Shown: in pieces, positions 19,199 through 36,443 of the stretch | How the letters are laid out: every line of letters starts with the position of its first letter | How positions within the stretch are numbered: the stretch's first letter is position 1 | NCBI GenBank assembly: GCA_945878865.1 | Contig: CAMCUD010000037.1 | Location: forward strand, 1-41,043 | DNA from: Bifidobacterium breve | Lineage (GTDB): Bacteria; Actinomycetota; Thermoleophilia; Solirubrobacterales; Solirubrobacteraceae | Length of the DNA stretch: 41,043 bases | Reading direction: 5' to 3' | The notes under the pieces: model-generated | The model's database searches: none | Seen by the model: the letters and a program-made list of their open reading frames with translations, nothing else | What the model was told of the DNA's origin: nothing | Position numbers and translations under genes: made by a program

Positions 19199-20902
19199 TC
19201 AGAACAGCGAGTAGCGCTGCGCGAGCGGCAGCTCGGTGGCGGGCATCGGCTCGATCGCCTCGCCGTCGACGGTGACGACGAACGTCTCCGGGTCGACGGC
19301 GATCTCCGGCAGCGCGGTGTTGTTCGGCATGTCGGCCTTCGTCACCGACCGGGTGTCGGTGAGCGCGACGAGCTCGCGGTCGAGGCCGAGCCGGTCGGCC
19401 AGGCCCGCCTCGATGGCCTCGGGCGCGACGAACGCGACGCTGCACTGGGGCGCGACCTTCGGCGCGGCGCCGAACATCGGGCGCGGCAGCACCGGCTGCG
19501 GCGTCGGGATCGACGCGTTCGCGTCGCCGATCGGCGCGTACGCGATGACGCCGCCCTTCAGCACCGCCTTCGGGCGGATGCCGAAGAACGCCGGCTCCCA
19601 CAGGACGAGGTCGGCGAGCTTCCCAGGCTCGACCGAGCCGATGACCCCATCCATCCCGTGCGCGACGGCCACGGCGATCGTGTACTTCGCGACGTAGCGC
19701 TTCGCCCGCTCGTTGTCCGCGCGCTCGGTCGCGCTCAGCGCGCCGTTGCGCCGCTTCATCACGTGCGCCGTCTGCCACGTGCGGATGATCGTCTCCCCCA
19801 CGCGCCCCATCGCCTGGCTGTCCGAGCCGATCATCGAGATGGCCCCGAGGTCGTGCAGGACGTCTTCGGCGGCCATCGTCGTCTCCCGGATCCGCGACTC
19901 GGCGAAGGCCAGGTCCTCAGGCACCTTCGGATTGAGGTGGTGGCAGACGATGAGCATGTCCTGGTGCTCGGCCAGGGTGTTGATCGTGTGCGGCCGGGTC
20001 GGGTTCGTCGACGACGGCAGGACGTTGGCGTGCGAGGCGATGGCGATGATGTCCGGCGCATGGCCGCCGCCGGCCCCCTCGGTGTGGAACGTGTGGATCG
20101 TCCGCCCCGCGATCGCGGCGAGCGTCGACTCGAGGTAGCCGGCCTCGTTGAGCGTGTCCGTGTGGATCGCCGTCTGCACGCCCCACCGGTCGCTGGCCGT
20201 CAGGCACGCGTCGATCGCCGCCGGGGTCGAGCCCCAGTCCTCGTGGAGCTTGAACCCGCCCGCCCCGGCGAGCACCTGCTCGGCGAGCGCATCGGCGCTC
20301 ACGGTGTTGCCCTTGCCCAGCAGGACGATGTTCATCGGCGCGGTGTCGAGCGCCCGGTGCATCATCCGCATGGCGTCCGCTGTGGTGCACGTCGTCGCCA
20401 GCGTGCCGTGGGTCGGGCCGGCGCCACCGCCAATCATGGTCGTGACCCCGCTGGCCAGCGCCTCGTCGACGAGCGTCGGGGTGATGAAGTGCACGTGGCA
20501 GTCGATCGCGCCGGCCGTGAGGATCTTGCCCTCGCCGGCCACGATGTCGGTGTTCGGCCCGAGGTGCAGCCCGGGCGTCACGCCGTCCATGATGTCCGGG
20601 TTGCCAGCCTTCCCCAGGGCGACGATGCGCCCGTCGCGGATGCCGACGTCGGCCTTGACGATCCCCCAGTGGTCGAGGACCACGACGTTCGTGATGACGA
20701 CGTCCGGCGCGCCCTGGGCGCGCGTGGTCGTGCCCTGGAGCATCGATTCGCGGATCGTCTTGCCGCCGCCGAAGACCGCCTCGTCGCCGCCGATGCAGCG
20801 GTCCTCCTCGACCTCGATCCAGAGGTCGGTGTCGGCGAGGCGAACGCGGTCGCCGACTGTCGGGCCGAGCAGCTCGGCGTAGCGGACACGGTCGAAGCTC
20901 AT
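19199..20902 (-). CDS. ureC: Urease alpha subunit (catalytic)
   Basis: A 567-residue urease catalytic subunit, complete for the family. The dinickel ligands are visible: CHVHFI, the carbamylated Lys in [32 protein letters not shown], and the Asp in [11 protein letters not shown]. The mobile-flap segment with the catalytic His is [15 protein letters not shown]. It hydrolyses urea to ammonia and carbamate in the cytosol. ATG 20902 overlaps the ureB stop as ATGA. All active-site residues I can check are intact. Confidence 0.98.
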
Positions 20903-21195
20903 GGCTTCACCTGCAGGCCCGGCACCTTCTTCTCGCCGCCGAGCGCGACGAGCGTGACGTCCCGCGACGCCCCCGGCTCGAAGCGCACCGACGTCCCCGC
21001 GTAGACGTCGAGGCGAAACCCGACGGCCGCCTCGCGGTCGAACTCCAGCGCGCTGTTGACGTCGGCGAAGTGAAAGTGCGAGCCGACCTGGATCGGCCGG
21101 TCGCCGGTGTTCAGCACCTCGATGATGCGCCGCTCGCGCGCGGGCGCCAGCTCGAGCGCGCCCTCGGCGGCGACGATCTCTCCGGGAACGAGCAT
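20899..21195 (-). CDS. ureB: Urease beta subunit
   Basis: A 98-residue structural subunit of urease, starting [40 protein letters not shown] is the family hallmark. The start is ATG 21195, sharing a base with the ureA stop (TGATG); a GTG one codon upstream is also possible. It is kept separate from ureA, as in most bacteria. Confidence 0.96.
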
Positions 21196-21500
21196 CACGC
21201 GATGGGCTGGTGGAGGGTCACGAGCTTGCGCCCGTCCGGGAACGTCGCCTCGACCTGCACCTCGTCGAGCATCTCGGGCACGCCCTCCATGACGTCGGCG
21301 CGGGAGAGCACCTCGCGGCCGTCGGCCATGAGCTGCTCGACGGTCGCGTCGCCGTCGCGGGCACGCTCCATCACCCAGCAGCAGAGCAGCGCCACCGACT
21401 CGGGATGGTTGAGCTTCACCCCCCGCGCGCGACGGTCGCGGGCGACCATCCCCGCGACGGACAACAACAGCTTCTCCTGGTCGGACGGGGTCAGGCGCAC
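21195..21500 (-). CDS. ureA: Urease gamma subunit
   Basis: A 101-residue subunit, [20 protein letters not shown] to [20 protein letters not shown], the usual UreA length and ends. GTG 21500 is chosen because it gives the family N-terminus and has GGAG five to six bases upstream. It is the first gene of the leftward urease operon, divergent from urtA. TTGACT at 21545-21540 could be a -35, but the matching -10 is poor. Confidence 0.95.
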
Positions 21501-21640
21501 GGCGTCTCCGGCGTCGTACAACGGGCGTGGACGGCGCCGAGTCAAGCAGACGGAATCCCCGCTGGGAAGGGGCATCACCCTGGGTGAGTACGCGCGGTCG
21601 AAGCGCACCGGCGCGGGATTCGACACTCGGTCGGGTTCGG

Positions 21641-21795: not shown

Positions 21796-23076
21796 ATGCA
21801 AACCCTAGGGGGGTTCGTGTCAACGCGTGAGAAGGGCGGCCGGTTCTGGCTGCTCGCCATCCTCGCCCTGTGCCTGTCGGCGTTCGTCGCCGTCGGCTGC
21901 GGCTCTGACAGCAAGGACGAGGCAAGCTCGACCTCGGCCAGCGCCTCGTCGGATTCGGGCGACACCATCAAGGTCGGCATCCTGCACTCGCTCAGCGGGA
22001 CGATGGCGATCTCCGAGGTCTCGGTGCGGGACTCCGAGCTGCTCGCCATCGAGGAGATCAACAAGAACGGCGGCGTCCTGGGCAAGCAGATCGAGCCCGT
22101 GATCGAGGACGGCGCGTCCGACTGGCCGACCTTCGCCGAGAAGGCGCAGAAGCTCATCTCGCAGGACCAGGTCGCCGCGACGTTCGGCGGCTGGACCTCG
22201 GCGTCGCGCAAGGCGATGCTGCCGGTCTTCGAGAAGAACAAGGCGCTCCTGTACTACCCCGTGCAGTACGAGGGCCTCGAGTCGTCGCCGTACATCTTCT
22301 ACACCGGCGCGACGACCAACCAGCAGATCATCCCCGCCCTCGAGTACCTCCAGAAGGAGAAAGGCGTCAAGAAGCTCTTCCTCGTCGGCAGCGACTACGT
22401 CTTCCCGCGCACGGCGAACAAGGAGATCAAGGCGTGGGCGAAGGCCAACGGCATGGAGGTCACCGGTGAGGAGTACGCGCCGCTGGGCTCGACCGAGTTC
22501 TCGACCATCGTCAACAAGGTCAAGGCGTCGAACTCCGATGCGGTCTTCAACACGCTGAACGGCGACTCGAACGTCGCGTTCTTCAAGCAGCTCGACGGCG
22601 CGGGCCTGCCCTCGGACAAGCTGCCGGTCGTGTCCGTCTCGATCGCCGAGGACGAGGTCCGCGGCATCGGCGCCGACAAGGTCAAGGGCCAGATCGTCGC
22701 GTGGAACTACTACCAGACCACGCCGGGCGCGGAGAACGAGAAGTTCGTCAAGGCCTACAAGGCGAAGTACGGCAAGAACCGCGTCACCGACGACCCGATC
22801 GAGGCCGGCTACGTCGGCGTCAAGCTCTGGGCCGCGGCGGTCGAGAAGGCCGGCTCCACGGACCCCGAGAAGGTCAAGGCGGCGTCGAAGGGCCTCACGC
22901 TCGACGCGCCTGAGGGCAAGGTCACGGTCAACGGTGAGAACCAGCACATCACCAAGACCTCGCGTATCGGCGTGATCAACGAGAACGGCCTGATCGACAC
23001 CGTCTGGGAGTCCGACGGCCCGATCGAGCCGGACCCGTACCTGAAGACCTACGACTGGGCGAAGGGCCTCTCCTAG
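21796..23076 (+). CDS. urtA: Urea ABC transporter substrate-binding lipoprotein
   Basis: A family 1-type periplasmic binding protein of about 420 residues. The signal peptide ends in AVGC, a lipobox, followed by a Ser/Ala/Asp linker, so it is tethered as a lipoprotein. [20 protein letters not shown] and [14 protein letters not shown] are signatures of UrtA rather than of branched-chain amino-acid binding proteins. It faces the urease operon across the intergenic region. The start is uncertain: ATG 21796 has no ribosome site, while GTG 21817 has AGGGGGG directly upstream and gives a cleaner signal peptide. Confidence 0.93.
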
Positions 23077-23152: not shown

Positions 23153-24043
23153 ATGGAAGCTCTCCTCGAACAGCTCGTCGTCGGCCTGAGCATCGGCTCG
23201 ATCCTGCTGCTGGTCGCCCTCGGCCTGACCTTCACGTTCGGTCAGATGGGCGTCATCAACATGGCCCACGGCGAGTTCATCATGGCCGGCGCGTACACGA
23301 CCTACGTGCTCCAGGAACTGCTCGGCGCGGAGAACATCACCGCCGCGTTCCTGCTCTCGCTGCCCATCGCCCTCGTCGTCGCGGGCCTGATGGGACTTCT
23401 GCTCGAAGCCACCCTCATCAAACGGCTCTACGGCAGACCGCTCGACACGCTCCTCGTCACGTGGGGCGTCGCGCTCATCCTCCAGCAGGTCGCACGCGAC
23501 GTCTTCGGCGCGCAGAACGTCGCAGTCGCCAGCCCGGCGTGGCTGGACGGCGGCACGGAGCTCTTCGGCATCGACCTGCCGTACAACCGCCTCTTCATCT
23601 TCGCCCTGGCGATGGCCGTCACGGTGGCCGCCTGGGTCGTCGTCGGCAAGCTCAAGCAGGGCCGCCGGATGCGCGCAGTCATGCAGAACCGCCAGCTGGC
23701 CGCCGCGAGCGGCATCGGCACGGCGAGCGTCGATCGCCGCACGTTCTTCCTGGGCTCCGGCCTGGCCGGCATCGCGGGCGTCGCGCTGACCCAGCTGGGA
23801 TCGGTCGGGCCGGCGCTGGGCACCTACTACATCATCGACGCGTTCCTCGTGGTCATCGTCGGCGGGCTCGGACAGCTGCGCGGCGCGGTGATCGCGGCGT
23901 TCAGCCTCGGGATCATCAACTCGCTGTCGGAGTACTGGACCCAGGCGTCGCTGGCGAAGGTCATCGTCTTCGTCTGCATCATCGTGTTCCTGCAGTTCCG
24001 GCCGCAGGGCATCTTCGCGACCGAGTCGAGGGGGCTGGCGTAA
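23153..24043 (+). CDS. urtB: Urea ABC transporter permease UrtB
   Basis: A 296-residue LivH-type permease with about eight membrane spans. SIGSILLLVALGLTFTFGQM, GVINMAHGEFIMAGAYTTY and VVIVGGLGQLRGAVIAA are typical of the family. It pairs with UrtC to form the channel. It is shorter than the ~500-residue proteobacterial UrtB, which has an N-terminal extension. No clear Shine-Dalgarno precedes ATG 23153. Its TAA overlaps the urtC ATG by one base. Confidence 0.94.
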   Translation: MEALLEQLVVGLSIGSILLLVALGLTFTFGQMGVINMAHGEFIMAGAYTTYVLQELLGAENITAAFLLSLPIALVVAGLMGLLLEATLIKRLYGRPLDTLLVTWGVALILQQVARDVFGAQNVAVASPAWLDGGTELFGIDLPYNRLFIFALAMAVTVAAWVVVGKLKQGRRMRAVMQNRQLAAASGIGTASVDRRTFFLGSGLAGIAGVALTQLGSVGPALGTYYIIDAFLVVIVGGLGQLRGAVIAAFSLGIINSLSEYWTQASLAKVIVFVCIIVFLQFRPQGIFATESRGLA

Positions 24044-25161
24044 TGGCCACGGCAATGAAGGCCCTCGGCCCGACGCGCGAGCAGCTGCTCGCGCGGGTGG
24101 GCTTCGCGGTGAGCGCGCTGCTCCTGCTCGTCGTCGCGCCGGCGTTCCTCTCGGACTTCCGGCTCGGCCTGCTGGCGAAGTTCCTCTGCTTCGCGATCAT
24201 CGCCGTCGGCATCGCGATCGCATGGGGCAACGGCGGCATGCTCGTCCTCGGCCAGGGGCTGTTCTTCGGCCTGGGCGGCTACTGCATGGCGATGTACCTC
24301 AAGCTCGCCGAGGCCGGCAGCGTCGGTCTGCCGGACTTCATGGTCTGGTCGGGCCGCGAGACGCTCCCCGCCTTCTGGAAGCCGTTCGAGCACGCGTGGT
24401 TCGCGGTGGGGGCGGCGGTGATCGTCCCGGTGATCTTCGCGGCGCTGCTCGGCACGCTGATCTTCCGCAGCCGCGTACGTGGGCCGTACTTCGCGATCCT
24501 CACGCAGGCGCTGGCGGCGGCGTTCGTGATCCTGCTCGTCGGCCAGCAGGCCATCACGGGCGGCACGAACGGCCTGACGAACATCACGACGTTCTTCGGG
24601 CTCGACCTCGCCGACCCGGGCGACCAGCGGGTCCTGTACTTCCTCGCGGCGATCTCGCTCGGGGTGGTCTACCTCATCGCCCGCCAGCTGCTGAACAGCC
24701 GGTACGGCAAGCTGCTCATCGCGGTGCGCGACGCGGAGGACCGCGTGCGGTTCCTCGGCTACAGCGCCACGCGCGTGAAGGTCATCGCGTTCGCCACCGC
24801 CGCCGGCATGGCCGGCCTGGCGGGGGCGCTGTTCGTGCCGATCGTGGGGATCATCTCCCCGGCGATGCTCGGCATCGTGCCGTCGATCGAGATGGTCGTC
24901 TGGGTGGCCGTCGGGGGGCGCGCCTCCCTGGCGGGGGCGATCGCGGGGGCGATCGCGGTGAACTGGGCGAAGTCCTCGCTCAGCGAGGAGTTCCCGTCGG
25001 GGTGGCTCTACTTCCAGGGCGCCCTGTTCATCGCGGTCGTCGCCTTCGCCCCGATGGGGATCGCCGGCGCCGTCGCGTGGGCGCGTGACCGGATCCTCGA
25101 GCGCACCGGCCGCAAGCAGCCCGGCCCGACGACGACCGCCACCGCGGAGGGAACCTCATGA
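24043..25161 (+). CDS. urtC: Urea ABC transporter permease UrtC
   Basis: A 372-residue LivM-type permease. GNGGMLVLGQGLFFGLGGYC, the Ala/Leu-rich segment after RGPYFAILTQ, QQAITGGTNGLTNI and AVRDAEDRVRFLGYSATRVK are characteristic of UrtC. The ATG at 24043 overlaps the urtB stop (TAATG). The C-terminal tail is hydrophilic and Thr-rich. It partners UrtB in the membrane. Confidence 0.95.
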   Translation: MATAMKALGPTREQLLARVGFAVSALLLLVVAPAFLSDFRLGLLAKFLCFAIIAVGIAIAWGNGGMLVLGQGLFFGLGGYCMAMYLKLAEAGSVGLPDFMVWSGRETLPAFWKPFEHAWFAVGAAVIVPVIFAALLGTLIFRSRVRGPYFAILTQALAAAFVILLVGQQAITGGTNGLTNITTFFGLDLADPGDQRVLYFLAAISLGVVYLIARQLLNSRYGKLLIAVRDAEDRVRFLGYSATRVKVIAFATAAGMAGLAGALFVPIVGIISPAMLGIVPSIEMVVWVAVGGRASLAGAIAGAIAVNWAKSSLSEEFPSGWLYFQGALFIAVVAFAPMGIAGAVAWARDRILERTGRKQPGPTTTATAEGTS

Positions 25162-25937
25162 CGACCGAGCCCTGGCTCATCGACGAGCTGCTGAAGATCC
25201 GTGGCCTGGAAGTCGACTTCGACGGCTTCAAGGCCGTCGACGGCGTCGACGTCGACGTCAAGGTCGGCGAGGTGCACTTCCTCATCGGCCCCAACGGCGC
25301 CGGCAAGACGACGGTGATCGACTGCATCACCGGCATGACGAAACCGACGGGCGGCTCGGTCCTGTTCGACGAGACCGAGCTGCGCGGCAAAAAGGAGAAC
25401 GAGATCGTCAAGCTCGGCGTCGGGCGGACCTTTCAGACGGCGAGCGTCTTCGAGGCGCTCACCGTCGAGGACAACCTCGACCTCGCCGCCTCGTTCCGGA
25501 TGTCCACGCTGAAGCTCCTGCGCCGGCGCAGGGGCACGTCGGAGACGGTGACGAAGGCCCTCGAGTCGACCGGCCTGGAGGACGTCCGCGCCAAGCCGGC
25601 GGGCACGCTGTCGCACGGGCAGAAGCAGTGGCTGGAGATCGGGATGCTGCTCTGCCAGGACCCCAAGCTCCTGTTGCTCGACGAGCCCGTGGCCGGCATG
25701 AGCCCGGAGGAGCGAACCCGCACGGGCGAGCTCATCCGGCTCGTCGCCGAGTCCTGCACCGTGCTGTGCGTCGAGCACGACATGGACTTCCTGCGGCGCT
25801 TCGCCGACCGGGTGACCGTGATGGACGAGGGCAAGGTCATCAAGGCCAACGCCACCGTCGCCGAGGTCCAGGCCGACGAGCGCATCCAGGAGATCTACAT
25901 CGGCAAGGGCCGGGGCATCGAGGAGGTTTCCGCATGA
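25158..25937 (+). CDS. urtD: Urea ABC transporter ATPase UrtD
   Basis: A 259-residue LivG-type ATPase. Walker A GPNGAGKTT, the Q-loop in GRTFQTASVFEALTV, signature LSHGQKQWLEI, Walker B LLLLDEPVAGMS and the switch His in VEHDMDF are all intact. ATG 25158 overlaps the urtC stop as ATGA. It energises urea import together with UrtE. Confidence 0.96.
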   Translation: MTTEPWLIDELLKIRGLEVDFDGFKAVDGVDVDVKVGEVHFLIGPNGAGKTTVIDCITGMTKPTGGSVLFDETELRGKKENEIVKLGVGRTFQTASVFEALTVEDNLDLAASFRMSTLKLLRRRRGTSETVTKALESTGLEDVRAKPAGTLSHGQKQWLEIGMLLCQDPKLLLLDEPVAGMSPEERTRTGELIRLVAESCTVLCVEHDMDFLRRFADRVTVMDEGKVIKANATVAEVQADERIQEIYIGKGRGIEEVSA

Positions 25938-26632
25938 AGCTCGAAGCCAGCGACCTGCGGGTCAGCCACGGCCGCACCCCGGCGCTGTTCGGCGTCTCGC
26001 TGTCCATCGACGCGGGCGGGCGCACGTGTGTGCTCGGCCGCAACGGGGTCGGCAAGACGTCGCTGATGAACGCGCTCATGGGCGTCCTGCCCGCGAAGAC
26101 CGGCACGGTGACCCTCGACGGCGAGGACATCACGAAGCTGCCGCCGTGGGAGCGCGTCAAGCGCGGCCTGGGCTACATCCCCCAGGAGCGCTCCGGGTTC
26201 CCGCAGCTGTCGGTCGGCGAGAACCTGCGGGTGGTCAACGAGTCGCGCAAGGGGGCCAAACCCTCCGACATCGACGAGGTGCTCGACCTCTTCCCGCGGC
26301 TCACACCGTTGCTCAAGCGCCCCGCCGTGTACCTCTCGGGCGGTCAGCGCCAGCAGCTGGCGATCGCCCGGGCGCTGCTGACCAAGCCGAAGCTCCTGCT
26401 GCTCGACGAGCCGACGGAGGGCATTCAGCCGTCGATCGTCGCGGAGATCGAGGAGTCGATCCTGGCGTTCCATTCCCGGGACGGACTCGGGCTCGTCGTC
26501 GCCGAGCAGTACGTCGAGATGGCGTTGCGGATGTCCGACGAGTACCTCGTGCTCGAAGCGGGCGTCGTGGTGCACCAGGGGCACACCGCCGACCTCACCC
26601 CCGAGGAGGCGGGCAAGCTGCTCGCGATCTAG
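25934..26632 (+). CDS. urtE: Urea ABC transporter ATPase UrtE
   Basis: A 232-residue LivF-type ATPase with Walker A GRNGVGKTS, signature LSGGQRQQLAIAR, Walker B LLLLDEPTEGIQPS and VVAEQYVEMA in place of the switch region, as expected for UrtE. A strong AGGAGG at 25921-25926 precedes ATG 25934, which overlaps the urtD stop. Its TAG shares the palindromic CTAG with the stop of the convergent GGDEF gene. Confidence 0.95.
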   Translation: MKLEASDLRVSHGRTPALFGVSLSIDAGGRTCVLGRNGVGKTSLMNALMGVLPAKTGTVTLDGEDITKLPPWERVKRGLGYIPQERSGFPQLSVGENLRVVNESRKGAKPSDIDEVLDLFPRLTPLLKRPAVYLSGGQRQQLAIARALLTKPKLLLLDEPTEGIQPSIVAEIEESILAFHSRDGLGLVVAEQYVEMALRMSDEYLVLEAGVVVHQGHTADLTPEEAGKLLAI

Positions 26633-28845
26633 CGAGCCTCGTCGTGGCCGCCGGGCGCGGCGGTTCGCGGGGGTTCCGGCGGGATGCGGGAAGGAGCGGT
26701 CCGCATCCCGCCGGGCTCCGGGGCGACGCTCGTCGTCCCCGCCAGCACGACACGGTTGCGGCCCTCGCGCTTGGCCGCCAGCAGCGCGGCGTCCGCCATG
26801 GCGAACGTCGCGTCGTAGTCGAGTGCCACGCCCGCTGGTGAGCTCGCGACGCCGAGGGAGATCGTCATCGGCAGCCCCGCGGCAGGCGTGCGCGCCACAC
26901 GCTCACGGATGCGCTGGGCGATCTGCGCCGCCGTCGCGGTGCTCGCGCCGGGCAGCAGGATCACGAACTCCTCGCCGCCGATGCGGTACACCGCGTCGAA
27001 CGCGCGCAGCTCGCCGCGGATACGGACCCCGATCTCGGCCAGGACCCGGTCGCCGGCCGCATGGCCGTGGACGTCGTTGACGGTCTTGAAGTGGTCGAGG
27101 TCGGCGACCACGACGGCGATCGGCTGGCGCCCGGCCGGAAGATGCGCGAGCTCGGCGATCCGCGCCTCGAGCGCGACGCGGTTCAGCGCGCCCGTCAGCT
27201 CGTCGCTGATGGCCGCGACCCGCAACTCGGCGACGCGGCCGCCCATGGCGCTGCCGACGATCGCCAGCGCCGCCTGCAGGGCGAGCGGGAGCGCGAGGAT
27301 CAGCGGGTTGGCCGCGACCTCAGACGCTCCGACCGCCAGCGCCGCGGCGGCCATCGAGACGGAGCCGGTCACCACGAGCACGCCGGCGCCGCGGCCCGGC
27401 AGCGACGTGCCGCAGCCGAACATCGCGATCGCGAAGATCGGCAACGCGAAGAGGATGTCGGGGCCTGCGATCAGCACCGTCAGCGCCGCCCCGAGCTGCA
27501 TGAGGATGAAGCTCGGCAGGAAGATGAGCTCGGGACGGCGCGTCCGCAGCGCACCCCGGACACCGACCTCCACGATCGCGCCGCTGACGAAGACCGGGAT
27601 GAGCATCTGCCAGCCCAGCCACGGCACCATCGAGACGATCGCGAGCGTCACGAGCGAGCTCGTCACCTTGGTCCCGGATCGCGTCCGCTCCACGATGTCG
27701 ACGAGGTGGGCGCGCGCGATCGCATCGCGCACGAGCCAGTTGCCCTCCGGCGCGCGTGGCGCCTCAGGCGCGACCGCCTGGGGTGCGGTATCGGGTTCGG
27801 CCTCCGCTGCGCCGGGCAGCTCGACGTCGCCCGCGACCCGCACCTGGTCGCGACCGAAGGCCTTCGCCGCGTACATCGCGGCGTCGGCCTGGCGGAACAC
27901 CGCGCGGTAGTCGAAGCCGTCATCAGGCGCCGTCACCGCGACGCCGACGGACGTCGTGACGCGACGCCCGTCGATGGGCGACGCCGCCACCGCGATGCGC
28001 ATCCGGTCGGCCAACGCCCGCGCGCTCTTCTCGTTCGCGCCGGCGAGCAGCACGACGAACTCCTCGCCGCCGAAGCGGTAGACCTGGGTGCCGTCCGCCG
28101 CGTCGACGAGCCGCCGGGCGACCTCTGCCAGGACCCGATCGCCGGCGGCGTGACCGTGCGTGTCGTTGATGTGCTTGAAGTGGTCGAGGTCGGCGACGAG
28201 GACCGCGACCCGCTCGTGGCTGTCGCGCACCTGGTGCGTGAGCTCGGCGACGCGCGCCATCAGCGCGGTCCGGTTGAAGAGCCCGGTCAGCTCATCGACG
28301 ACGGCGTCGTCGCGCGTGACCATGTCGGCGTCGCGCACGGCCATGGCGGCGAACACGATCACGACGAGCAGGAGCACCGGGACCCACAACGCCGGAGGCA
28401 TCGCCTCGATCTGGTCCGGCGCCGTCGTGAGCGTCACCGCGACGAGGCCGACGATGCTGAGGACCGACGCGACGGCGACCGTGGCGCGCCGGAACCCGAT
28501 CGCGGCGAGCAGCACCGGGAAGATCGGCGCGCACATGAGGTAGATGACGGGGCCTTCGGCCACTGCGACGGTGAGCAGGACCATGGCCTGGGCGAAGACG
28601 AACGAGCCGAAGCTCGCCCAGTCGCCGCACCGGTCGTGGATCGCCGGCAGACGCGTCCCGGCGAAGACCAGCCCGGCGGCGATGATCGGCAGCACCGCCT
28701 GCAGGCCGTAGACCGGGAGGGCGAGCGCGACGGGGACGAGCAGCGTGCTCATGGCAAGCAGCTGGGCACCCGCGAGCCTCCCGCCCATGTCGAGCAGGCG
28801 CTCACGTTCCTCCTGGTCGCGATAGAGCAGGCGGCTCAGGTCCAT
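26629..28845 (-). CDS. Membrane protein with two tandem membrane-GGDEF halves
   Basis: A 738-residue predicted diguanylate cyclase, which makes c-di-GMP from two GTP. It is an internal duplication. Each half has about six hydrophobic helices (roughly 25-170 and 395-535) followed by a GGDEF domain with an intact GGEEF (259-263 and 623-627) and matching DELTG, ADLDHFK and HGHAAGDRVLAE segments. The second domain has the RxxD inhibitory site (RAFD, 614-617); the first does not (ADGT). The ATG at 28845 is preferred because codons between it and the upstream ATG at 28899 (MRRQNSVGRV...) look non-coding; 28899 would put it 24 bases after the histidine kinase. It is last in the signalling operon. 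Confidence 0.85.
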   Translation of the reverse strand: MDLSRLLYRDQEERERLLDMGGRLAGAQLLAMSTLLVPVALALPVYGLQAVLPIIAAGLVFAGTRLPAIHDRCGDWASFGSFVFAQAMVLLTVAVAEGPVIYLMCAPIFPVLLAAIGFRRATVAVASVLSIVGLVAVTLTTAPDQIEAMPPALWVPVLLLVVIVFAAMAVRDADMVTRDDAVVDELTGLFNRTALMARVAELTHQVRDSHERVAVLVADLDHFKHINDTHGHAAGDRVLAEVARRLVDAADGTQVYRFGGEEFVVLLAGANEKSARALADRMRIAVAASPIDGRRVTTSVGVAVTAPDDGFDYRAVFRQADAAMYAAKAFGRDQVRVAGDVELPGAAEAEPDTAPQAVAPEAPRAPEGNWLVRDAIARAHLVDIVERTRSGTKVTSSLVTLAIVSMVPWLGWQMLIPVFVSGAIVEVGVRGALRTRRPELIFLPSFILMQLGAALTVLIAGPDILFALPIFAIAMFGCGTSLPGRGAGVLVVTGSVSMAAAALAVGASEVAANPLILALPLALQAALAIVGSAMGGRVAELRVAAISDELTGALNRVALEARIAELAHLPAGRQPIAVVVADLDHFKTVNDVHGHAAGDRVLAEIGVRIRGELRAFDAVYRIGGEEFVILLPGASTATAAQIAQRIRERVARTPAAGLPMTISLGVASSPAGVALDYDATFAMADAALLAAKREGRNRVVLAGTTSVAPEPGGMRTAPSRIPPEPPRTAAPGGHDEAR
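26676..26714. terminator. 14-bp perfect inverted repeat near the urtE / GGDEF convergent end
   Basis: The arms CCGGCGGGATGCGG and CCGCATCCCGCCGG pair fully around an 11-base loop. The repeat starts 44 bases past the urtE stop and lies within the 3' coding end of the GGDEF gene. It lacks a T-tract but is the obvious candidate to end the urt transcript. Confidence 0.5.
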
Positions 28846-28923
28846 ACGTTCGTGGCGTATCGGCGTCAGCACTCGGCCTACCGAGTTCTGACGTCTCATT
28901 CTGGCCGATCGGCGCGCCCGGCC

Positions 28924-31827
28924 TCAGCGACCGGCGGGCATGACGGCGACGAGCGCGTTGCGCAGCTCGTGCAGCAACGCCTCGAGCTCCCCCGCGTCCT
29001 CGTCGCCGACCGCCGCGTGCTCAAGCCGCTCGGCGGTCTCGGCGACCGCCCACGCCCCGACGACGCGGCTCGCGCCGAGGATCTGGTGCGCGCGCCGGCG
29101 CACCGCCGGCCGGTCGCCGAGCTCCAGCGCCTCGGTGAGACCCTGGAGGTCGTCGCGAACGGCCTCGGCGTAGGACTGCAGGATCTGGGCGCCGAGCTCC
29201 TCGTCACCGGCGGCGACCTCGTCGAGCGCGCTCCCGTCGACGGCCGGCGGGATCGCCCGGGGCGCGTCCGCCTCCTCGGCCTGCGGCCAGGCGACATCGG
29301 GCAGCCACGTCCGCAGCGTGCCCGCGAGGATGTCCATCGTGGTCGGCTTCGTGACGACGTCGTCCATGCCGGCCGCGCGGCAGCGCTCGCGCTCACCCTG
29401 CAGCGCGCTCGCCGTGAGGGCCAGCAGCGGCACGCGCGGACGGCCGGTGTCCTGCTCGGCGGCCCGCAGCCGCCGGGCGAGCTCGTAGCCGTCGACATGG
29501 GGCAGCTGGATGTCGGTGAATACCAGGCCGTACCGGCCCTGTCCGAAGCGCGAGAGCGCCTGCTCGGCGTCGGCGGCGACGTCGACGCGGAAGCCGATGG
29601 CCTCCAGCTGCCCGGCCAGAACCTCGCGGTTGACCGGATTGTCCTCGACGAGGAGCAGCAGGCTGCCCTCGCGCTCAGCCGCGGCCCGGCTGGGCAGCCG
29701 TCGCCGGCCGGAGAACGCCAGGCGACGGTCGGCCGGACCGGGCTCGGCCTCGTCAGGCGCGCCCAGCGCCAGCGGCAGCTCGACGCGCACCGTCGTCCCC
29801 TGTCCCACGGTGCTGCGCAACGTGACGTCCCCGCCCATCGCATCGGCGAGCTGGCGCACGATGACCAGGCCGAGACCGGTGCCCTCGCTGCTGCGCGCGT
29901 TGTCCGTGCTCGCCTGCGTGAACGGCTTGAACAGCCGGGCCTGGTCGGCCTCCGAGATGCCGATGCCGGTGTCGCGCACCTCGAAGCGCACGCGCTGCGC
30001 GGTGTCATCCTGGTCGACGACCTCCACGGCGAGCTCCACCCCACCTTGCCGCGTGAACTTCAGCGCGTTGGAGATGAGGTTGCCGAGGATCTGCCGCAGT
30101 CGCGCGCCGTCCACCTCGTGCGCCGGCGCGAGGCGCTGGTCCACGGCGGCGCTGAGAGCGAGCCCCCGCACCGCCGCAGCGTGGCGGTACTGCGCGGCGA
30201 CGTCCTCGACGAGCGGACCGACCGCGATCGTCGCCGGCGCCAGATCGAGGAACCCGGCTTCGATCTTCGAGAAGTCCAGCACGTCGCCGATCACCGACAG
30301 CAGCGCGCGGGCGGAGCCCATCGCGACGTCGACGAGCTCGCGCTGGCGCTGGTCGAGATCGCCGATGCTCAGGATCTCCAGCGTGCCCGTCACCGCGACG
30401 AGCGGCGTGCGCAGCTCGTGGCTCATCATCGCCAGGAACGCGGACTTCGCCCGGTCGGCCGCCTCGGCGTCCTCGCGCGCCCGGCGCAGGTCGGACTCGA
30501 GCATCTTGCGATCGGTCACGTCGGCGACGTAGCCGTACAGCTCGGCCGAGCCGTCGAGGTTCCGCAGCGCCAGCGCCTGGCCCTGCATCCAGCGCACCCC
30601 GCCGTCCGGGCCGACGATCCGGTACTCGCGCTGCCACGTGCCGCCGGTCCGCGCCGCCTCGAGCATCGAGTCCAGCCAGCCGCCGCGGTCCTCGGGCAGG
30701 ACCGCGCGCGCCATCCCGGGGAAGTCGACGTCCTGGTTGCCGTCGACCCGGTGGATACTTCCGTGGCGGCTGGCGAACCGCACGCTGAACGCCCCGTCGA
30801 CGTCGACGTGGAACTGGAACACGGCGCCCGGCACGCGGTCGGCGATCGTCTGCAGGCGGTTCTCCGCCTCGCGGGCCTCGCGCTCGGCGCGCCGCCGCGC
30901 GCCGAGGTCGCGCTGCACCGCGTCGGCCATCTCGTTGAAGTCCCCCGCCAGCTGCGCGAGCTCCTGGACCCCGGCGGGCGTGGGGCGCTGCGACCAGTCG
31001 CCGCGCGTGATGCGCTGCGTCACCTCGGCCAGGCGCGAGAGCGGGCGGACGATCGCGCGCCGGGCCACGACGAGCGTCGCGACGAGGGTGGCGATGAGCA
31101 GCGCGAGGATGGCGGTCTGCGCCGCGAGCAGCCGGTTCGTCTTGGCCTGCAGCTGGGCGGCACGCCGCTCGGTGCGCGCGTCGACGAGCGCGGTGAACCG
31201 GTCGATGGCCGTCATGATCACCCGCTTCTGGCGGTGATACTCGGCGTCCTGGAGCAGGCGGTTCTCGCGCGCGATGTCCCGCGGGTACTCGGAGTCGACC
31301 CCGGCGGCGATGCGCGGCGCGACGCGCTCCATGACCTCCTTCTCCAGGACGGCCAGGCCGTTGGAGGCGCGCAGCGACGCGTTGAGTGCCGCGAACTCGT
31401 CGGGGGCGAAGTGCGCGCGGCGCATGAGCTCGACGAGCGACGCCGGCGGCCCGGTCCGGATCCGGCCCGCCGGGTTGGCCAGGACGCGGTCCCAGAACGA
31501 GCTGTCGTAGTTGACCGGCCGTGGCGCCTCGCCCGAGCGGATCTGGAGGATCTCGTCGTAGTACTGACGGAAGCGCGAGTCGCCGGTCGTCACGTACAGG
31601 CGGACCATGCGCGTGAGGTCGTTCGAGCTCTGGCGCATCTGGTCGGACAGGCGGAAGGACGTCACGCGCTGACGCTCGGCGTCCGTGCGGTCCGTCGCGG
31701 TGCGGACCTGCAGCACGGTGACGACCGAGAGCAGCGCCGACAGCAGCAGGACGAGGACGAGCAGGCCGGTCAGCAGCTGGCGGATCGACAGCGCGCGACG
31801 GGGGTGAGCCGGCGCGTCGGCCGTCAT
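28924..31827 (-). CDS. Hybrid sensor histidine kinase (TM-HAMP-PAS-HisKA-HATPase-REC-Hpt)
   Basis: A 967-residue membrane sensor. Helix 1 is at about 18-40, an extracytoplasmic helical sensor of about 190 residues follows, then helix 2 at about 237-255 and HAMP at 256-310. A PAS domain (about 320-440), HisKA with H470 in MMSHELRTPL, HATPase (NLISNALKF, DTGIGIS, GTGLGL), REC with D772 in VFTDIQLPHVDG, and a C-terminal Hpt with H914 in AHQILGAS complete it. Phosphate can therefore pass His-Asp-His to a separate receiver, most simply the REC domain of the neighbouring gene. ATG 31827 overlaps that gene's stop as ATGA. Confidence 0.92.
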   Translation of the reverse strand: MTADAPAHPRRALSIRQLLTGLLVLVLLLSALLSVVTVLQVRTATDRTDAERQRVTSFRLSDQMRQSSNDLTRMVRLYVTTGDSRFRQYYDEILQIRSGEAPRPVNYDSSFWDRVLANPAGRIRTGPPASLVELMRRAHFAPDEFAALNASLRASNGLAVLEKEVMERVAPRIAAGVDSEYPRDIARENRLLQDAEYHRQKRVIMTAIDRFTALVDARTERRAAQLQAKTNRLLAAQTAILALLIATLVATLVVARRAIVRPLSRLAEVTQRITRGDWSQRPTPAGVQELAQLAGDFNEMADAVQRDLGARRRAEREAREAENRLQTIADRVPGAVFQFHVDVDGAFSVRFASRHGSIHRVDGNQDVDFPGMARAVLPEDRGGWLDSMLEAARTGGTWQREYRIVGPDGGVRWMQGQALALRNLDGSAELYGYVADVTDRKMLESDLRRAREDAEAADRAKSAFLAMMSHELRTPLVAVTGTLEILSIGDLDQRQRELVDVAMGSARALLSVIGDVLDFSKIEAGFLDLAPATIAVGPLVEDVAAQYRHAAAVRGLALSAAVDQRLAPAHEVDGARLRQILGNLISNALKFTRQGGVELAVEVVDQDDTAQRVRFEVRDTGIGISEADQARLFKPFTQASTDNARSSEGTGLGLVIVRQLADAMGGDVTLRSTVGQGTTVRVELPLALGAPDEAEPGPADRRLAFSGRRRLPSRAAAEREGSLLLLVEDNPVNREVLAGQLEAIGFRVDVAADAEQALSRFGQGRYGLVFTDIQLPHVDGYELARRLRAAEQDTGRPRVPLLALTASALQGERERCRAAGMDDVVTKPTTMDILAGTLRTWLPDVAWPQAEEADAPRAIPPAVDGSALDEVAAGDEELGAQILQSYAEAVRDDLQGLTEALELGDRPAVRRRAHQILGASRVVGAWAVAETAERLEHAAVGDEDAGELEALLHELRNALVAVMPAGR

Positions 31828-33011
31828 CCCGGGGCGGCCCCCGCCCAGCCGGCGATCCGGTCGATCGACAGCGGCGCGCCGACCGACCGGCCCTGCGCGC
31901 GATCGGCGCCGAGCTGGGCGACGAGATCGCGCTCGGCGGCGGTGTCGCAGCCATCGGCGACGACGCGCACGCCCCGTTCCCGCAGGGCGCGGATGGTCGC
32001 TTCGAGCGCCTCGGTGCGCTGCGCGCCATCCGGGCCCGCCACGCCCGCGATCGCGTCGCGGGCGAGGACGACCTCGGTCAGCGGCAGGCCGTCGGGGCCG
32101 CCGATCGTCGCGTCGCCCGTGGTGAAGCCGTCGAGGCCGAGACCGAACCCGCGGACCCGCAGCCGGGTCAGCACGTCGAGCTCCGCGGCGGCCACCGGCA
32201 GCTCGGGGCGACGCGGAAGGGCGACGCAGAACCGGCGCGGATCGATCCCCCCGGCGCGGGCGCGCGCCGTCAGGCGGTCGGCCAGCGCGAGGTCCGAGCA
32301 CGCGGCGGGCGGCACGATGACCGTCGCGTCGATTCCCAGCGCCGGGCCGTCGACCTCGAGCAGCGCCTCGCACGCGACGTCGACGACGTGCTCGGCGACG
32401 TCGATCGCCGCCGGCCGCGCCCACGCCTCAGCGAGCTCCGTCGCGGCGTCGATCGGGCCGAGGTCGTCGTCGACACGCCACGCGCGCGCCTGCAGACCGG
32501 CCGGCCGGCCCGAGAGGAGGTCCACCCGGGGCGTGAGCGCGACCGTGACGCGGCCGTCGCGCAGCGCGTCTGCCCACGTCTGCGCGGGCGTCTCGGACGG
32601 CTGCTGGATCCCACGCGGGCTCAGCGGCCGGTGCAGGCCCACGACCTCCAGCAGCCGGCGGGCCGTCAGCGGCTTGCGCACCGCGCCCAGCACCTCGAGG
32701 CCGTACGCGCGAGCGGTCGTCTCCGCCGCCCGGAGCACGTCGTCGTCCAGGCCGCTGGCGATCACGATCGCCGTGTCGATGCTGCGCTCGGAGACGTGGC
32801 GCAGGAACTCGACGCCGTCCATCCCCGGCATGTCGAGGTCGACGACGACGACGTCGGGCTTCGGCTCGCCCGAGAGCAGCGCGAGGGCGACGTCACCGTC
32901 CTCGGCCTCCAGCAGACGGCCGGCGCCGAGGTTGGCGAGGATCTGCAGCATCGTGCGCCGCTGGAACTCATGGTCCTCCACGACCATGACCGTGCAGTCC
33001 GCCAGGGTCAC
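31824..33011 (-). CDS. Response regulator: REC plus degenerate EAL domain
   Basis: A 395-residue protein. REC (about 1-125) has the phosphoacceptor D58 in VVVVDLDMPGMDG and K113. The C-terminal part aligns with EAL c-di-GMP phosphodiesterases but has lost the catalytic signatures: the EAL triplet reads QAR (174-176), the DDFGTG-like loop reads LDGFTTGDATIG, and AEGVET reads ADGCDT. It is therefore probably a c-di-GMP binder or a protein-interaction output, not an enzyme. GTG 33011 overlaps the LuxR gene stop (GTGA). It is the likely phosphorelay partner of the adjacent hybrid kinase. Confidence 0.8.
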   Translation of the reverse strand: MTLADCTVMVVEDHEFQRRTMLQILANLGAGRLLEAEDGDVALALLSGEPKPDVVVVDLDMPGMDGVEFLRHVSERSIDTAIVIASGLDDDVLRAAETTARAYGLEVLGAVRKPLTARRLLEVVGLHRPLSPRGIQQPSETPAQTWADALRDGRVTVALTPRVDLLSGRPAGLQARAWRVDDDLGPIDAATELAEAWARPAAIDVAEHVVDVACEALLEVDGPALGIDATVIVPPAACSDLALADRLTARARAGGIDPRRFCVALPRRPELPVAAAELDVLTRLRVRGFGLGLDGFTTGDATIGGPDGLPLTEVVLARDAIAGVAGPDGAQRTEALEATIRALRERGVRVVADGCDTAAERDLVAQLGADRAQGRSVGAPLSIDRIAGWAGAAPG

Positions 33012-35281
33012 CGCAGTTCCTCCGCGTAGGTCATCTGAAGCCCTCCGAGCAGGCCGAGCTCTCGCCCGCGCCGCACCGCCTCCTCCCGCGACGCGACCCC
33101 GAGCTTGGCGTAGAGCGCGCGGGTGTGCGTCTTGATCGTGTTGCGGCTGATGAACAGCTCGTCGGCGACCTGGCGCAGGCTGCCCGGCCCGGCGAGCGCG
33201 GCGAGCACCTCCAGCTCGCGGACGCTGAGGTCCTCCGGCGCGGCGCTCTCCTGGGCGGCCCGCGGGACGGGCGCGCCGGCGACGTCCCGGAGCCAGCCCG
33301 GCAGCGCGCCGGCGTCGCGCGCGCCCGCGAGCGCGGCCATCGCCTGCTCCGCGGCGTCGCGCGCGGGGCCGGGCTCATCCAGCGCGCGGTGCGCCCTCGC
33401 CAGCTCGAGGAGCACGGCGGGGACCATGAGCGACGAGTCCCGCCAGCCGCGCGCGAGGTCGAGGCCGGCGCGACACGCGAGGACGGCCTCGGCCGGCCGG
33501 CCGGCCTCCGTGAGCAGCCGCGCGCGGGCATAGGTCACGGGCAGCGTGTGGGGCGAGGCGCGCAGCGGGCCGTTGTCGCGTTCGGCCACGGCGGTGCCCA
33601 CCATCGCGCGCGCCTCGATCTGGTCGCCGCGGCGCAGCGCCGCGACGCCGAGCACCGCACGCGGCAGGTACGCCACGAGCGGCAGGCCGGCGGACGGGAG
33701 GTGGACCTGCTCGGCCAGCGCATGCTGCGCCAGCCGCTCGGCGTCCGCGTCGTCACCGAGCAGGTGCAGGTGCCAGGAGGTCAGCGCCTCGACCGCGGCC
33801 CGCGCCGGAGCGCCGCGCGGCAGGACCGACAGCGCCTGCCGCGCCGCCGCCACGGCGCGGCCCAGATCGTCGAAGCAGATCATGGCCTCCAGGCACTGGG
33901 CGGCCAGGCCGTAGCTCGCGGTGCCGTCGGGCATGGGCCCCGCCCACCCTGCGGTCTCCCCCGTCGCCAGCCACCCGTCGCGGCGCTCACGGTCGCCGTC
34001 CAGGGCGGCCAGCAGCGCGCTGACGTAACACAGCCGCGCGTCCGCCCCGACGACCTCCGCCGGGAACTGCGCGAGCCACTCGCGCGCCCGGCCGCCGAGC
34101 GCGCCGGACTGCACGAAGCGGATGCTGTGGCAGGCCAGCAGCTCCGCCGCGAGGTCCCAGTCGCGCGCGGCGAGGTAGTGGTGCATCGCCTCGACGAGCT
34201 CGCCCTCCCCGCCCTCGGTCTCGAACCAGCCGCCCGCGCGCACGTGCAGCTCCCGCGCGCGCTGCGGGTCGGTCGCCAGCAGGCGGTTGCGCAGGACGTC
34301 ACGCAGCAGGTGATGGCAGCGAAACCACGTTCTCGAGCGATCCAGCGGGCTGAGCAGCAACGACGAGCGCGTCAGGCTCCCGAACGCCTCACGGGTGTCC
34401 GCCGTGTCGCCGAGCAGGCGGACGCAGAGGTCGAGATTGAACCGGTCGAGCACCGACGTCTCGAGGATGAACCGGCGCTCGTGGTCGGGCGAGCTGCGCA
34501 GCACCTCGTCGGTGAGGTCGCCGATGAGGTCCTCGTCGGAGGACCGCAGCTGCTCCACGACCTCCTCGGGCGCGTCACCGAGGCGCAGCCGCAGCGCGGC
34601 GAGATACAGGGCGGCCGGCCAGCCCTCGGTGCGGCGCTCCAGCGCGACCACCTCGTCCGGCCCGATCGCCAGGCCGAGGGCGTCGCGCAGGAACCGCGTC
34701 GTCTCGTCGGGGTCGAAGCGCAGGTCGTCGGCGCGGACGTCGAGCGCCTCGCCGTGCCCGCGCAGGCGCCGCAGCGCGTCCAGCCCGGGGTCGCGGCGCG
34801 CGGCGATCATCACGCGGTGCCCGCGCGGCAGGCGGGCGAGGAACCAGTCGACGCTCTCGCGCGTGCCGGGATCATCGAGCGCGAGGTGCAGGTCGTCGAG
34901 GACGACCGTCACGGGCGCGTCGGTCTCGGCGAGCGCGTCGAGCAGCGCGATGAGGACCCCCGCGCGCAGATCGGCGTCAGGTGCCTCCGCGGCGTCGAGC
35001 GCCGGGCCCAGCGCGTCGCCGAGGATCGGCTGCAGGGCGGTCAGCACCGCAAGCCAGAGCCGCGCGCCCTCGTCGTCGTCGTCGATCGAGACCCACGCCA
35101 CGCGGTCGCCGTCGGGCACCCGCGCCGCCCACTGCGCGAGCAGCGTGCTCTTGCCGAAGCCGGCGGGCGCGCTCACCACCACCGCGCGCGCGGCGCTGCG
35201 CGCGATGGCGTCGAGCAGCACCGAACGCTCGACATGCTCGGCCCGCGCGGGCGGGCGATGGAACTTCGTCTGCGGAAACAC
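33008..35281 (-). CDS. MalT/LAL-family LuxR-type transcription regulator
   Basis: A 757-residue ATP-dependent regulator. The N-terminus is FPQTKFHRPPARAEHVERSV, then the P-loop SAPAGFGKST and Walker B VTVVLDDLHLAL of the STAND ATPase. TPR-like helical repeats fill the middle. The LuxR helix-turn-helix is C-terminal (LSVRELEVLAALAGPGSLRQ and FISRNTIKTHTRALYAKLGV). GTG 35281 is chosen because MalT relatives begin right at this 'K.HRP' motif and because the upstream in-frame codons (from ATG 35326) run through two dyad sequences. It heads the c-di-GMP operon and may respond to a small ligand plus ATP; its targets are unknown. Confidence 0.88.
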   Translation of the reverse strand: MFPQTKFHRPPARAEHVERSVLLDAIARSAARAVVVSAPAGFGKSTLLAQWAARVPDGDRVAWVSIDDDDEGARLWLAVLTALQPILGDALGPALDAAEAPDADLRAGVLIALLDALAETDAPVTVVLDDLHLALDDPGTRESVDWFLARLPRGHRVMIAARRDPGLDALRRLRGHGEALDVRADDLRFDPDETTRFLRDALGLAIGPDEVVALERRTEGWPAALYLAALRLRLGDAPEEVVEQLRSSDEDLIGDLTDEVLRSSPDHERRFILETSVLDRFNLDLCVRLLGDTADTREAFGSLTRSSLLLSPLDRSRTWFRCHHLLRDVLRNRLLATDPQRARELHVRAGGWFETEGGEGELVEAMHHYLAARDWDLAAELLACHSIRFVQSGALGGRAREWLAQFPAEVVGADARLCYVSALLAALDGDRERRDGWLATGETAGWAGPMPDGTASYGLAAQCLEAMICFDDLGRAVAAARQALSVLPRGAPARAAVEALTSWHLHLLGDDADAERLAQHALAEQVHLPSAGLPLVAYLPRAVLGVAALRRGDQIEARAMVGTAVAERDNGPLRASPHTLPVTYARARLLTEAGRPAEAVLACRAGLDLARGWRDSSLMVPAVLLELARAHRALDEPGPARDAAEQAMAALAGARDAGALPGWLRDVAGAPVPRAAQESAAPEDLSVRELEVLAALAGPGSLRQVADELFISRNTIKTHTRALYAKLGVASREEAVRRGRELGLLGGLQMTYAEELR

Positions 35282-35303
35282 GCATCCCCAATGGTGGGGA
35301 TGC
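35282..35303. promoter_or_regulatory. 22-bp palindrome abutting the LAL regulator start
   Basis: GCATCCCCA and TGGGGATGC, nine-base perfect arms, surround a four-base centre. It ends at the base next to the proposed GTG, so its GGGG also serves as the ribosome site. It could be an autoregulatory operator or an RNA hairpin that hides the ribosome site. Confidence 0.55.
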
Positions 35304-35328
35304 GTCGCAGCCCGCACAACCGCCATCA

Positions 35329-35359
35329 GGGCGAATCACCCCGGGTGACTGTTTCGCCC
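35329..35359. promoter_or_regulatory. Composite dyad in the LAL / DUF559 divergent region
   Basis: Outer arms GGGCGAA and TTCGCCC enclose inner arms TCACC and GGTGA, with a four-base asymmetric bulge. It lies in the divergent region between the LAL regulator and DUF559 copy 2 and could control either. Confidence 0.4.
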
Positions 35360-35453
35360 GGATGGCACGTTGATCGCCGCGCCTGAGCGCAGACATGGTG
35401 CCGATTCTGCGCAGATCGCCGGTCGGGCGAGCAGCAGCCCTGAGGATCGTCGC

Positions 35454-36395: not shown

Positions 36396-36427
36396 CGTTT
36401 GTCGCGCTGAGCGAGACAAACGTCACC
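36391..36427. repeat. 35-nt palindrome, copy B, over the stop of DUF559 copy 2
   Basis: Perfect 13-base arms GGTGACGTTTGTC and GACAAACGTCACC, then one mismatch and three more pairs (CGC/GCG) around a TGA loop. The left arm provides the TGA stop at 36393-36395. It lies between convergent genes, 17 bases before the phosphodiesterase stop, and has no T-tract. Confidence 0.85.
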
Positions 36428-36443
36428 GTCCGCTGCGCGCCCA

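What the first reader, a model, noticed from the sequence alone, without database searches (positions are those of the whole stretch)
26629..35281. Four-gene c-di-GMP signalling operon headed by a MalT-type regulator
LAL LuxR regulator, REC-degenerate EAL, hybrid kinase with Hpt, and double GGDEF enzyme run in one direction; the first three genes are linked by 4-base stop/start overlaps. The kinase Hpt can phosphorylate the REC of the EAL-like protein, which could read c-di-GMP made by the GGDEF protein, while the LAL protein sets transcription. I know of no described system with this exact set.
Basis: inference. Interest (0 to 1): 0.58.

Follow-up and report, generated by a model that had tools for sequence, protein, structure and literature searches.

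The report
Urea-linked kinase and MalT-type regulator
The four genes are real, but their conserved core looks like a dedicated switch for urea uptake and urease in a group of soil bacteria, with the c-di-GMP parts either dead or a late local addition.

Summary
In detail: a LAL (MalT-type) regulator, REC plus degenerate EAL, hybrid kinase with Hpt, and a two-GGDEF protein lie in one direction, the first three joined by 4-base overlaps. The c-di-GMP reading mostly fails. The four-gene set occurs only in the window's genus (3 of 3 genomes). The core LAL-REC-kinase occurs in 9 of 146 family genomes; in Patulibacter the EAL domain is absent. What travels with the core is urea metabolism. In the window it abuts urtABCDE (urea transporter), beside ureABC (urease). 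Eight of nine core genomes have urease (17 of 137 others), and LAL is divergent from ureABC in two. A palindrome, TCACCC[C/G]GGGTGA, resembling published MalT sites, precedes LAL and urtA: 9 of 10 exact copies in the nine core genomes lie before LAL, urtA or an orphan kinase paralogue. It, or a one-mismatch form, precedes urtA in 7 of 7 core genomes with urtA and 0 of 6 genomes without LAL. Best explanation: a phosphorelay acting through a stand-alone receiver and the LAL protein controls its own operon and urease/urea uptake. Binding, phosphotransfer and the signal are untested.

The parts
33008..35281 (-). LAL (MalT-type, STAND) LuxR transcription regulator
   Evidence: Pfam AAA_16 and GerE above cut-off; Walker A APAGFGKST and HTH SRNTIKTHTR
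31824..33011 (-). Receiver with degenerate EAL domain (REC-EAL)
28924..31827 (-). Membrane hybrid histidine kinase: helical sensor, HAMP, PAS, HisKA, HATPase, REC, Hpt
26629..28899 (-). Protein with two GGDEF (GGEEF) domains; genus-specific addition
35335..35349 (.). Palindromic operator candidate before LAL (TCACCC[C/G]GGGTGA core)
21574..21588 (.). Same palindrome (centre base differs) between ureA and urtA, with further GGGTGA half-sites to 21688
19199..20902 (-). ureC, urease alpha subunit (proposed target operon)
   Evidence: NCBIfam above cut-off
20899..21195 (-). ureB, urease beta subunit
   Evidence: NCBIfam above cut-off
21195..21500 (-). ureA, urease gamma subunit
   Evidence: NCBIfam above cut-off
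21796..23076 (+). urtA, urea ABC transporter binding protein (proposed target operon)
   Evidence: TIGR03407 above cut-off
23153..24043 (+). urtB, permease
   Evidence: TIGR03409 above cut-off
24043..25161 (+). urtC, permease
   Evidence: TIGR03408 above cut-off
25158..25937 (+). urtD, ATPase
   Evidence: TIGR03411 above cut-off
25934..26632 (+). urtE, ATPase; stop overlaps the stop of the convergent GGDEF gene
   Evidence: TIGR03410 266.2 bits, just under the cut-off of 285.8

Best explanation
LAL-REC(-EAL)-kinase is a dedicated regulatory cassette for urea use. Proposed working: the membrane kinase senses an unknown signal through its helical extracytoplasmic domain and passes phosphate His-Asp-His through its own REC and Hpt to the stand-alone receiver made from the neighbouring gene. 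The phosphorylated receiver, made in step with the LAL protein by translational coupling, changes the ATP-dependent assembly of the LAL protein, which binds palindromic and clustered GGGTGA half-sites before its own operon and between ureA and urtA, and so sets urease and urea-transporter expression with autoregulation. The EAL domain is a dead, eroding remnant, at most a protein-contact surface. The GGDEF protein is a genus-specific addition that may add a c-di-GMP output. Shown here: gene order, residue conservation, linkage and co-occurrence with urease/urt, placement of the palindrome. Inferred: phosphotransfer, receiver-LAL contact, LAL-palindrome binding, activation or repression, the signal.
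For: Core conserved as a unit: LAL orthologues in 9 of 146 family genomes, 10 copies, all with REC and kinase in the same order; in G125, G131 and G141 a contig break splits LAL and the two pieces were read separately. Urease: UreC of 55% identity or more in 8 of 9 LAL genomes and 17 of 137 others (p 2e-6); UrtA in 7 of 9 and 8 of 137 (p 9e-7); genus level 4 of 4 against 5 of 21 (p 0.01). Counting all 36 genomes with any UreC hit, 8 of 9 and 28 of 137, p 5e-5. Linkage in 7 of 9 genomes: urt abuts the cassette in G000, G001, G010 and (contig break) G002; LAL is divergent from ureA in G125 and G130; urtA lies 6 kb past the kinase in G126. Palindrome: exact TCACCC[C/G]GGGTGA occurs 10 times in the nine LAL genomes, 9 of them before LAL (3), urtA (5) or an orphan kinase paralogue (1); 2 copies in nine chosen genomes without LAL, neither near urea genes. 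Exact or one-mismatch core before urtA in 7 of 7 LAL genomes with urtA, 0 of 6 others (p 6e-4). GGGTGA clusters likewise. The half-site is one base from MalT's GGA(T/G)GA and the palindrome resembles the Actinoplanes MalT-like site TCATCC-5nt-GGATGA (PMC7567727, passages). In the SARP-type relatives (G053, G054, Acidimicrobiia L043) a SARP-like region is fused to the REC-EAL, an independent link of this receiver to transcription (SARP named by eye).
Against: G131 has the cassette but no urease or UrtA hit; G141 has urease but no UrtA hit and no palindrome found before ureA. LAL promoters of G010, G125, G126 copy a and G130 lack the palindrome. G130's LAL has a different recognition helix (SHNTVKTHAR), yet an exact palindrome precedes its urtA, so helix and palindrome do not co-vary cleanly (6 of 7 against 0 of 2 at LAL promoters, p 0.08, computed without the G125 LAL promoter; with it 6 of 8). 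The palindrome also fits the published BldD box (PMC4151990). One G126 copy lies by a dnaA-like gene, and a near copy precedes a FliS-like gene in G030, which has no cassette. The genomes are related, so the p-values are optimistic. There is no direct evidence that the receiver touches the LAL protein.
Confidence: 0.63

Rival explanations
1. The palindrome is read by another, unidentified regulator (a BldD-like or nitrogen regulator), and the LAL cassette is only one more target of it beside ure/urt. The cassette then need not control urea genes.
For: The core fits the BldD box. Four LAL promoters lack the palindrome, and it occurs near a dnaA-like gene in G126 and a FliS-like gene in G030.
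Against: BldD C-terminal domain in 0 of 146 family genomes against 79 of 246 in the phylum. Six genomes with urtA but no LAL lack the palindrome before urtA. The half-site resembles MalT sites.
Confidence: 0.15
2. The LAL protein answers to its own small ligand, as MalT does to maltotriose, and controls ure/urt alone, while the kinase and receiver are a co-transcribed but separate output, for instance on protein partners through the EAL remnant.
For: MalT is activated by ligand binding to its sensor (PMC4381067, passages). No evidence of receiver-LAL contact was obtained.
Against: Five Patulibacter copies keep only a bare receiver between LAL and kinase. The 4-base overlaps are kept, and a SARP-like region is fused to the same receiver in relatives.
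Confidence: 0.17
3. One reading: a c-di-GMP circuit in which the EAL-like domain reads c-di-GMP made by the GGDEF protein.
For: Both GGDEF domains look active and are encoded next to the REC-EAL gene. The EAL fold is predicted intact, and EAL dN/dS of 0.13-0.36 shows some constraint.
Against: Catalytic and signature residues lost; EAL shortened or absent in relatives; GGDEF gene only in the genus.
Confidence: 0.05

Closest known systems
VieSAB of Vibrio cholerae (PMC4352251, abstract and passages read)
   Same: Hybrid kinase with REC and Hpt passing phosphate to a REC-EAL protein tied to DNA binding; one operon.
   Different: VieA carries a c-di-GMP phosphodiesterase between REC and HTH. Here the EAL is degenerate or missing and the DNA-binding protein is a separate LAL regulator. 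No VieB counterpart was seen.
Roc system (RocS1, RocR, RocA1) of Pseudomonas aeruginosa (PMC12051241, abstract and passages read)
   Same: REC-EAL protein encoded next to an unorthodox kinase and a LuxR-HTH regulator; RocR (3sy8) is the best full-length match.
   Different: RocR is a phosphodiesterase; RocA1 is itself a response regulator whereas LAL has no receiver; the kinase sensor differs; the target here appears to be urea genes.
MalT and the Actinoplanes MalT-like activator (PMC7567727 and PMC4381067, abstracts and passages read)
   Same: LAL/STAND regulator; palindrome of TCA(T/C)CC and GG(A/G)TGA halves before targets.
   Different: Spacer of 1 nt instead of 5; A to G in the half-site; encoded with a phosphorelay; below the MalT family cut-off.
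Urease control by GlnR or AmtR in actinobacteria (recalled; related papers seen only in the listing)
   Same: Transcriptional control of urease and urea transport.
   Different: Global regulators, not a locus-specific kinase-LAL cassette.

Membership tests
EAL phosphodiesterase (RocR/PvrR) | Catalytic and metal-binding residues of EAL | tested here: not met
   Of ten RocR positions mapped only D295 and Q372 kept (positions recalled); NF052596 131.4 bits against a cut-off of 580
EAL phosphodiesterase (RocR/PvrR) | REC-EAL architecture and fold | tested here: met
Degenerate-EAL c-di-GMP receptor (FimX, LapD) | Retained ExLxR ligand signature (recalled) | tested here: not met
   RocR E175 and R179 align with Q and W here
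Degenerate-EAL c-di-GMP receptor (FimX, LapD) | c-di-GMP binding | not testable with these tools
   Needs a binding assay
VieSAB/Roc phosphorelay | Hybrid kinase with HisKA, REC and Hpt phospho-sites | tested here: met
   13 of 13 rows with data, 14 rows in all
VieSAB/Roc phosphorelay | DNA-binding response regulator (REC-HTH or REC-EAL-HTH) | tested here: not met
   LAL has no receiver domain and the REC-EAL protein no HTH; a SARP-like fusion exists only in a sister clade
LAL (large ATP-binding LuxR) regulators | N-terminal NTPase with Walker A and C-terminal LuxR HTH | tested here: met
   AAA_16 and GerE; APAGFGKST
MalT proper | NCBIfam MalT equivalog cut-off | tested here: not met
   252.6 bits against 537
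MalT-type DNA site | GGA(T/G)GA half-sites before targets | tested here: inconclusive
   GGGTGA half-sites, one base different, at LAL and ure/urt; binding untested
BldD regulon | BldD box TNAC(N)5GTNA | tested here: met
BldD regulon | A BldD protein in the genome | tested here: not met
   PF21179 in 0 of 146 family genomes; 79 of 246 in the phylum
Diguanylate cyclase | GGDEF/GGEEF active site | tested here: met
   Two GGEEF motifs; activity untested
Urea transporter and urease operons | NCBIfam cut-offs of UreABC and UrtABCDE | tested here: met
   Seven of eight genes above cut-off; UrtE 266.2 of 285.8

The most novel reading that the evidence does not exclude
A three-protein relay in which a phosphorylated stand-alone receiver switches a separate STAND-type LAL transcription factor that controls, through a near-unique palindrome, just two places in the genome: its own operon and urease/urea transport. 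The EAL on the receiver is a former c-di-GMP enzyme kept, eroded or discarded by lineage, with a new cyclase recently attached in one genus.
Probability: 0.42. Interest if true: 0.7.

Novelty: new variant of a known kind. Interest (0 to 1): 0.56.

Why it matters
Urease and urea transport decide which bacteria can use urea nitrogen. I found no description of a kinase-LAL cassette controlling them in the listings. If right, this gives a named target set, a 13-base candidate operator and a way to test how phosphate signalling can drive a LAL/STAND regulator, a class whose best-known member, MalT, is driven by a ligand. It also shows a c-di-GMP domain being worn away inside a working signalling operon.

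Tried and rejected
c-di-GMP receptor model: rejected as the main function because of lost residues, faster evolution and absence in relatives. BldD reading the palindrome: considered because the core fits the BldD box, set aside because PF21179 is in 0 of 146 family genomes; the first search was uninformative alone (its control genomes were silent), so it was repeated across the phylum, 79 of 246. A sigma-70 promoter scan found no site. Structural search of the kinase sensor gave no significant match (best NarQ, E 0.018), so the signal stays unknown. The palindrome was not found (3 mismatches or fewer) in the separate ureA upstream stretches of G018, G054, G125, G126 and G141. Helix-palindrome co-variation was not significant and G130 speaks against it. 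The UreC threshold of 55% identity was set after seeing the hits, which fall into 56-100% (25 genomes) and 42-47% (11 genomes); both countings are given. The 18 genomes were chosen, not drawn at random.
Full report
WHAT IS THERE. The four genes are as described: LAL regulator 33008-35281, REC-EAL 31824-33011, hybrid kinase 28924-31827, two-GGDEF protein 26629-28899, all on the minus strand. The two 4-base overlaps are real. The GGDEF gene starts 24 nt after the kinase stop and its stop overlaps the stop of the convergent urtE by 4 nt.

CONSERVATION. The window belongs to a small genus (3 genomes held); the nearest named relative is Svornostia abyssi. All four genes stand together in 3 of 3 genomes of the genus; the GGDEF gene was not found at the cassette in any other family genome. 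LAL orthologues of about 58% identity or more occur in 9 of 146 family genomes, 10 copies; the next best LAL proteins reach only 38%. Each copy is followed by the receiver and the kinase; in G125, G131 and G141 the LAL gene is split by a contig end and the two pieces lie on two contigs. In G130 the contig ends inside the kinase. The 4-base LAL/REC overlap is kept in 9 of 9 testable copies. In a sister clade (G053, G054, an Acidimicrobiia MAG) there is no LAL gene beside the kinase and the receiver is fused instead to a SARP-like DNA-binding region (named by eye from the sequences). A kinase tree of 14 rows separates the two clades (100/100) and groups the window's genus with G010 (98/96); G141 groups with Patulibacter only weakly (83/94).

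THE EAL DOMAIN. The protein aligns end to end with RocR and its model matches RocR best, but of ten mapped RocR positions only D295 and Q372 remain (positions recalled). Within the genus dN/dS is 0.01-0.06 for the receiver and 0.13-0.36 for the EAL part, so the EAL part is still constrained, but less. In G141 the protein is shortened and in all five Patulibacter copies only the receiver is left. Since both clades contain REC-EAL proteins, the EAL domain was most likely ancestral and lost in Patulibacter (inference, whose root is a midpoint).

THE UREA LINK. The genes next door are ureABC (minus) and urtABCDE (plus): NCBIfam models for ureA, ureB, ureC, UrtA, UrtB, UrtC and UrtD pass their cut-offs; UrtE falls just short, 266.2 of 285.8. 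The same layout, with the cassette converging on urtE, is in G001 and G010; in G002 the contig ends in urtE and ure/urt sit on another contig. In G125 and G130 the LAL gene is divergent from ureA, starts about 285 and 195 nt apart. In G126 urtA lies 6 kb downstream of one cassette copy. UreC of 55% identity or more is present in 8 of 9 LAL genomes and 17 of 137 others; UrtA in 7 of 9 and 8 of 137. With every UreC hit counted the figures are 8 of 9 and 28 of 137, p 5e-5. Shared ancestry inflates these values; at genus level p is 0.01. G131 has the cassette with neither UreC nor UrtA.

THE PALINDROME. ATCACCC[C/G]GGGTGAT or a close form lies 53-108 nt before LAL in G000, G001, G002, G126 copy b, G131 and G141; it is not there (3 mismatches or fewer) in G010, G125, G126 copy a and G130. 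For G131 and G141 the sites were first seen as unexplained pattern matches; the missing LAL halves were then looked for and found beside them. The same palindrome lies between ureA and urtA in G000, G001, G002 and G010, 40-74 nt from the ureA start, and before urtA in G125, G126 and G130. G000's copy there differs from the core only in the centre base and G126's at one arm base. That is 7 of 7 LAL genomes with urtA. In six genomes with urtA but no LAL orthologue (G016, G018, G019, G032, G034, G054) none was found. The exact core was then counted in 18 chosen genomes: 10 sites in the nine LAL genomes (none exact in G131 and G141), 9 of them before LAL, urtA or the orphan kinase of G126 and one near a dnaA-like gene; 2 sites, both in G137, in nine genomes without LAL. 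In G001 and G002 the only two exact copies in the genome are at LAL and at ure/urt. GGGTGA half-sites cluster there too: 4-5 in the 300 nt before urtA in G000, G001, G002, G010 and G125, and five within about 100 nt further upstream in G126; none in the 300 nt before urtA of the six genomes without LAL.

WHO READS IT. The half-site GGGTGA is one base from the E. coli MalT core GGA(T/G)GA, and the Actinoplanes MalT-like activator uses TCATCC-5nt-GGATGA (PMC7567727, passages). The core also fits the Streptomyces BldD box TNAC(N)5GTNA (PMC4151990, passages), but the BldD C-terminal domain is in 0 of 146 family genomes and in 79 of 246 genomes of the phylum. LAL is therefore the leading candidate. 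Two LAL copies with a different recognition helix (SHNTVKTHAR, G126 copy a and G130) lack the site at LAL, but G130 has it before urtA, so this correlation is weak.

MECHANISM. Kinase, receiver and Hpt phospho-sites are intact. The most economical wiring is kinase to receiver to LAL to ure/urt and its own operon. The step from receiver to LAL is inference from translational coupling, from the lack of any other output domain in Patulibacter, and from the SARP-like fusion in the sister clade. Direction of control and the signal are unknown; the sensor model is largely helical without a significant structural match.

KNOWN AND NEW. It works like VieSA or the Roc system in its relay (PMC4352251, PMC12051241, passages) and like MalT in its DNA-binding protein, but fails membership of both where tested. 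Literature listings showed no description of this cassette or of a LAL-linked phosphorelay for urease; only openly licensed papers were searched.

Noticed in passing
window 35370-36395 (+), repeats 35458-35495 and 36392-36429: A DUF559/AbiEi-like ORF (weak Pfam hits below cut-off) is flanked by 38-nt inverted repeats, 71% complementary. In G001 and G002 a different gene stands upstream of LAL, so it may be a mobile insertion.
   Followed up: partly
window 35280-35305: Perfect 11-nt inverted repeat ACGCATCCCCA/TGGGGATGCGT abutting the LAL start codon, in the window and not in G001 or G002; its arms contain GGGGATG as in MalT boxes.
   Followed up: no
L052 and L053; kinase residues about 36-250: The kinase sensor domain drew no Pfam name and related sequence also heads GGDEF-EAL proteins in Zoogloea and another betaproteobacterium.
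   Followed up: partly
L047 9863-12451: Orphan kinase paralogue in Patulibacter minatonensis without LAL or receiver beside it but with the same palindrome about 50 nt upstream.
   Followed up: partly
L059 around 2419: The palindrome lies before a FliS-like ORF in G030, which has no LAL cassette.
   Followed up: no
G001 C1 2446769-2448045: urtA of G001 matches in two overlapping pieces reported separately, a possible frameshift or sequencing error.
   Followed up: no
G000 C7 109184-113408: Two further tandem two-GGDEF genes of the same type side by side elsewhere in the genome.
   Followed up: no
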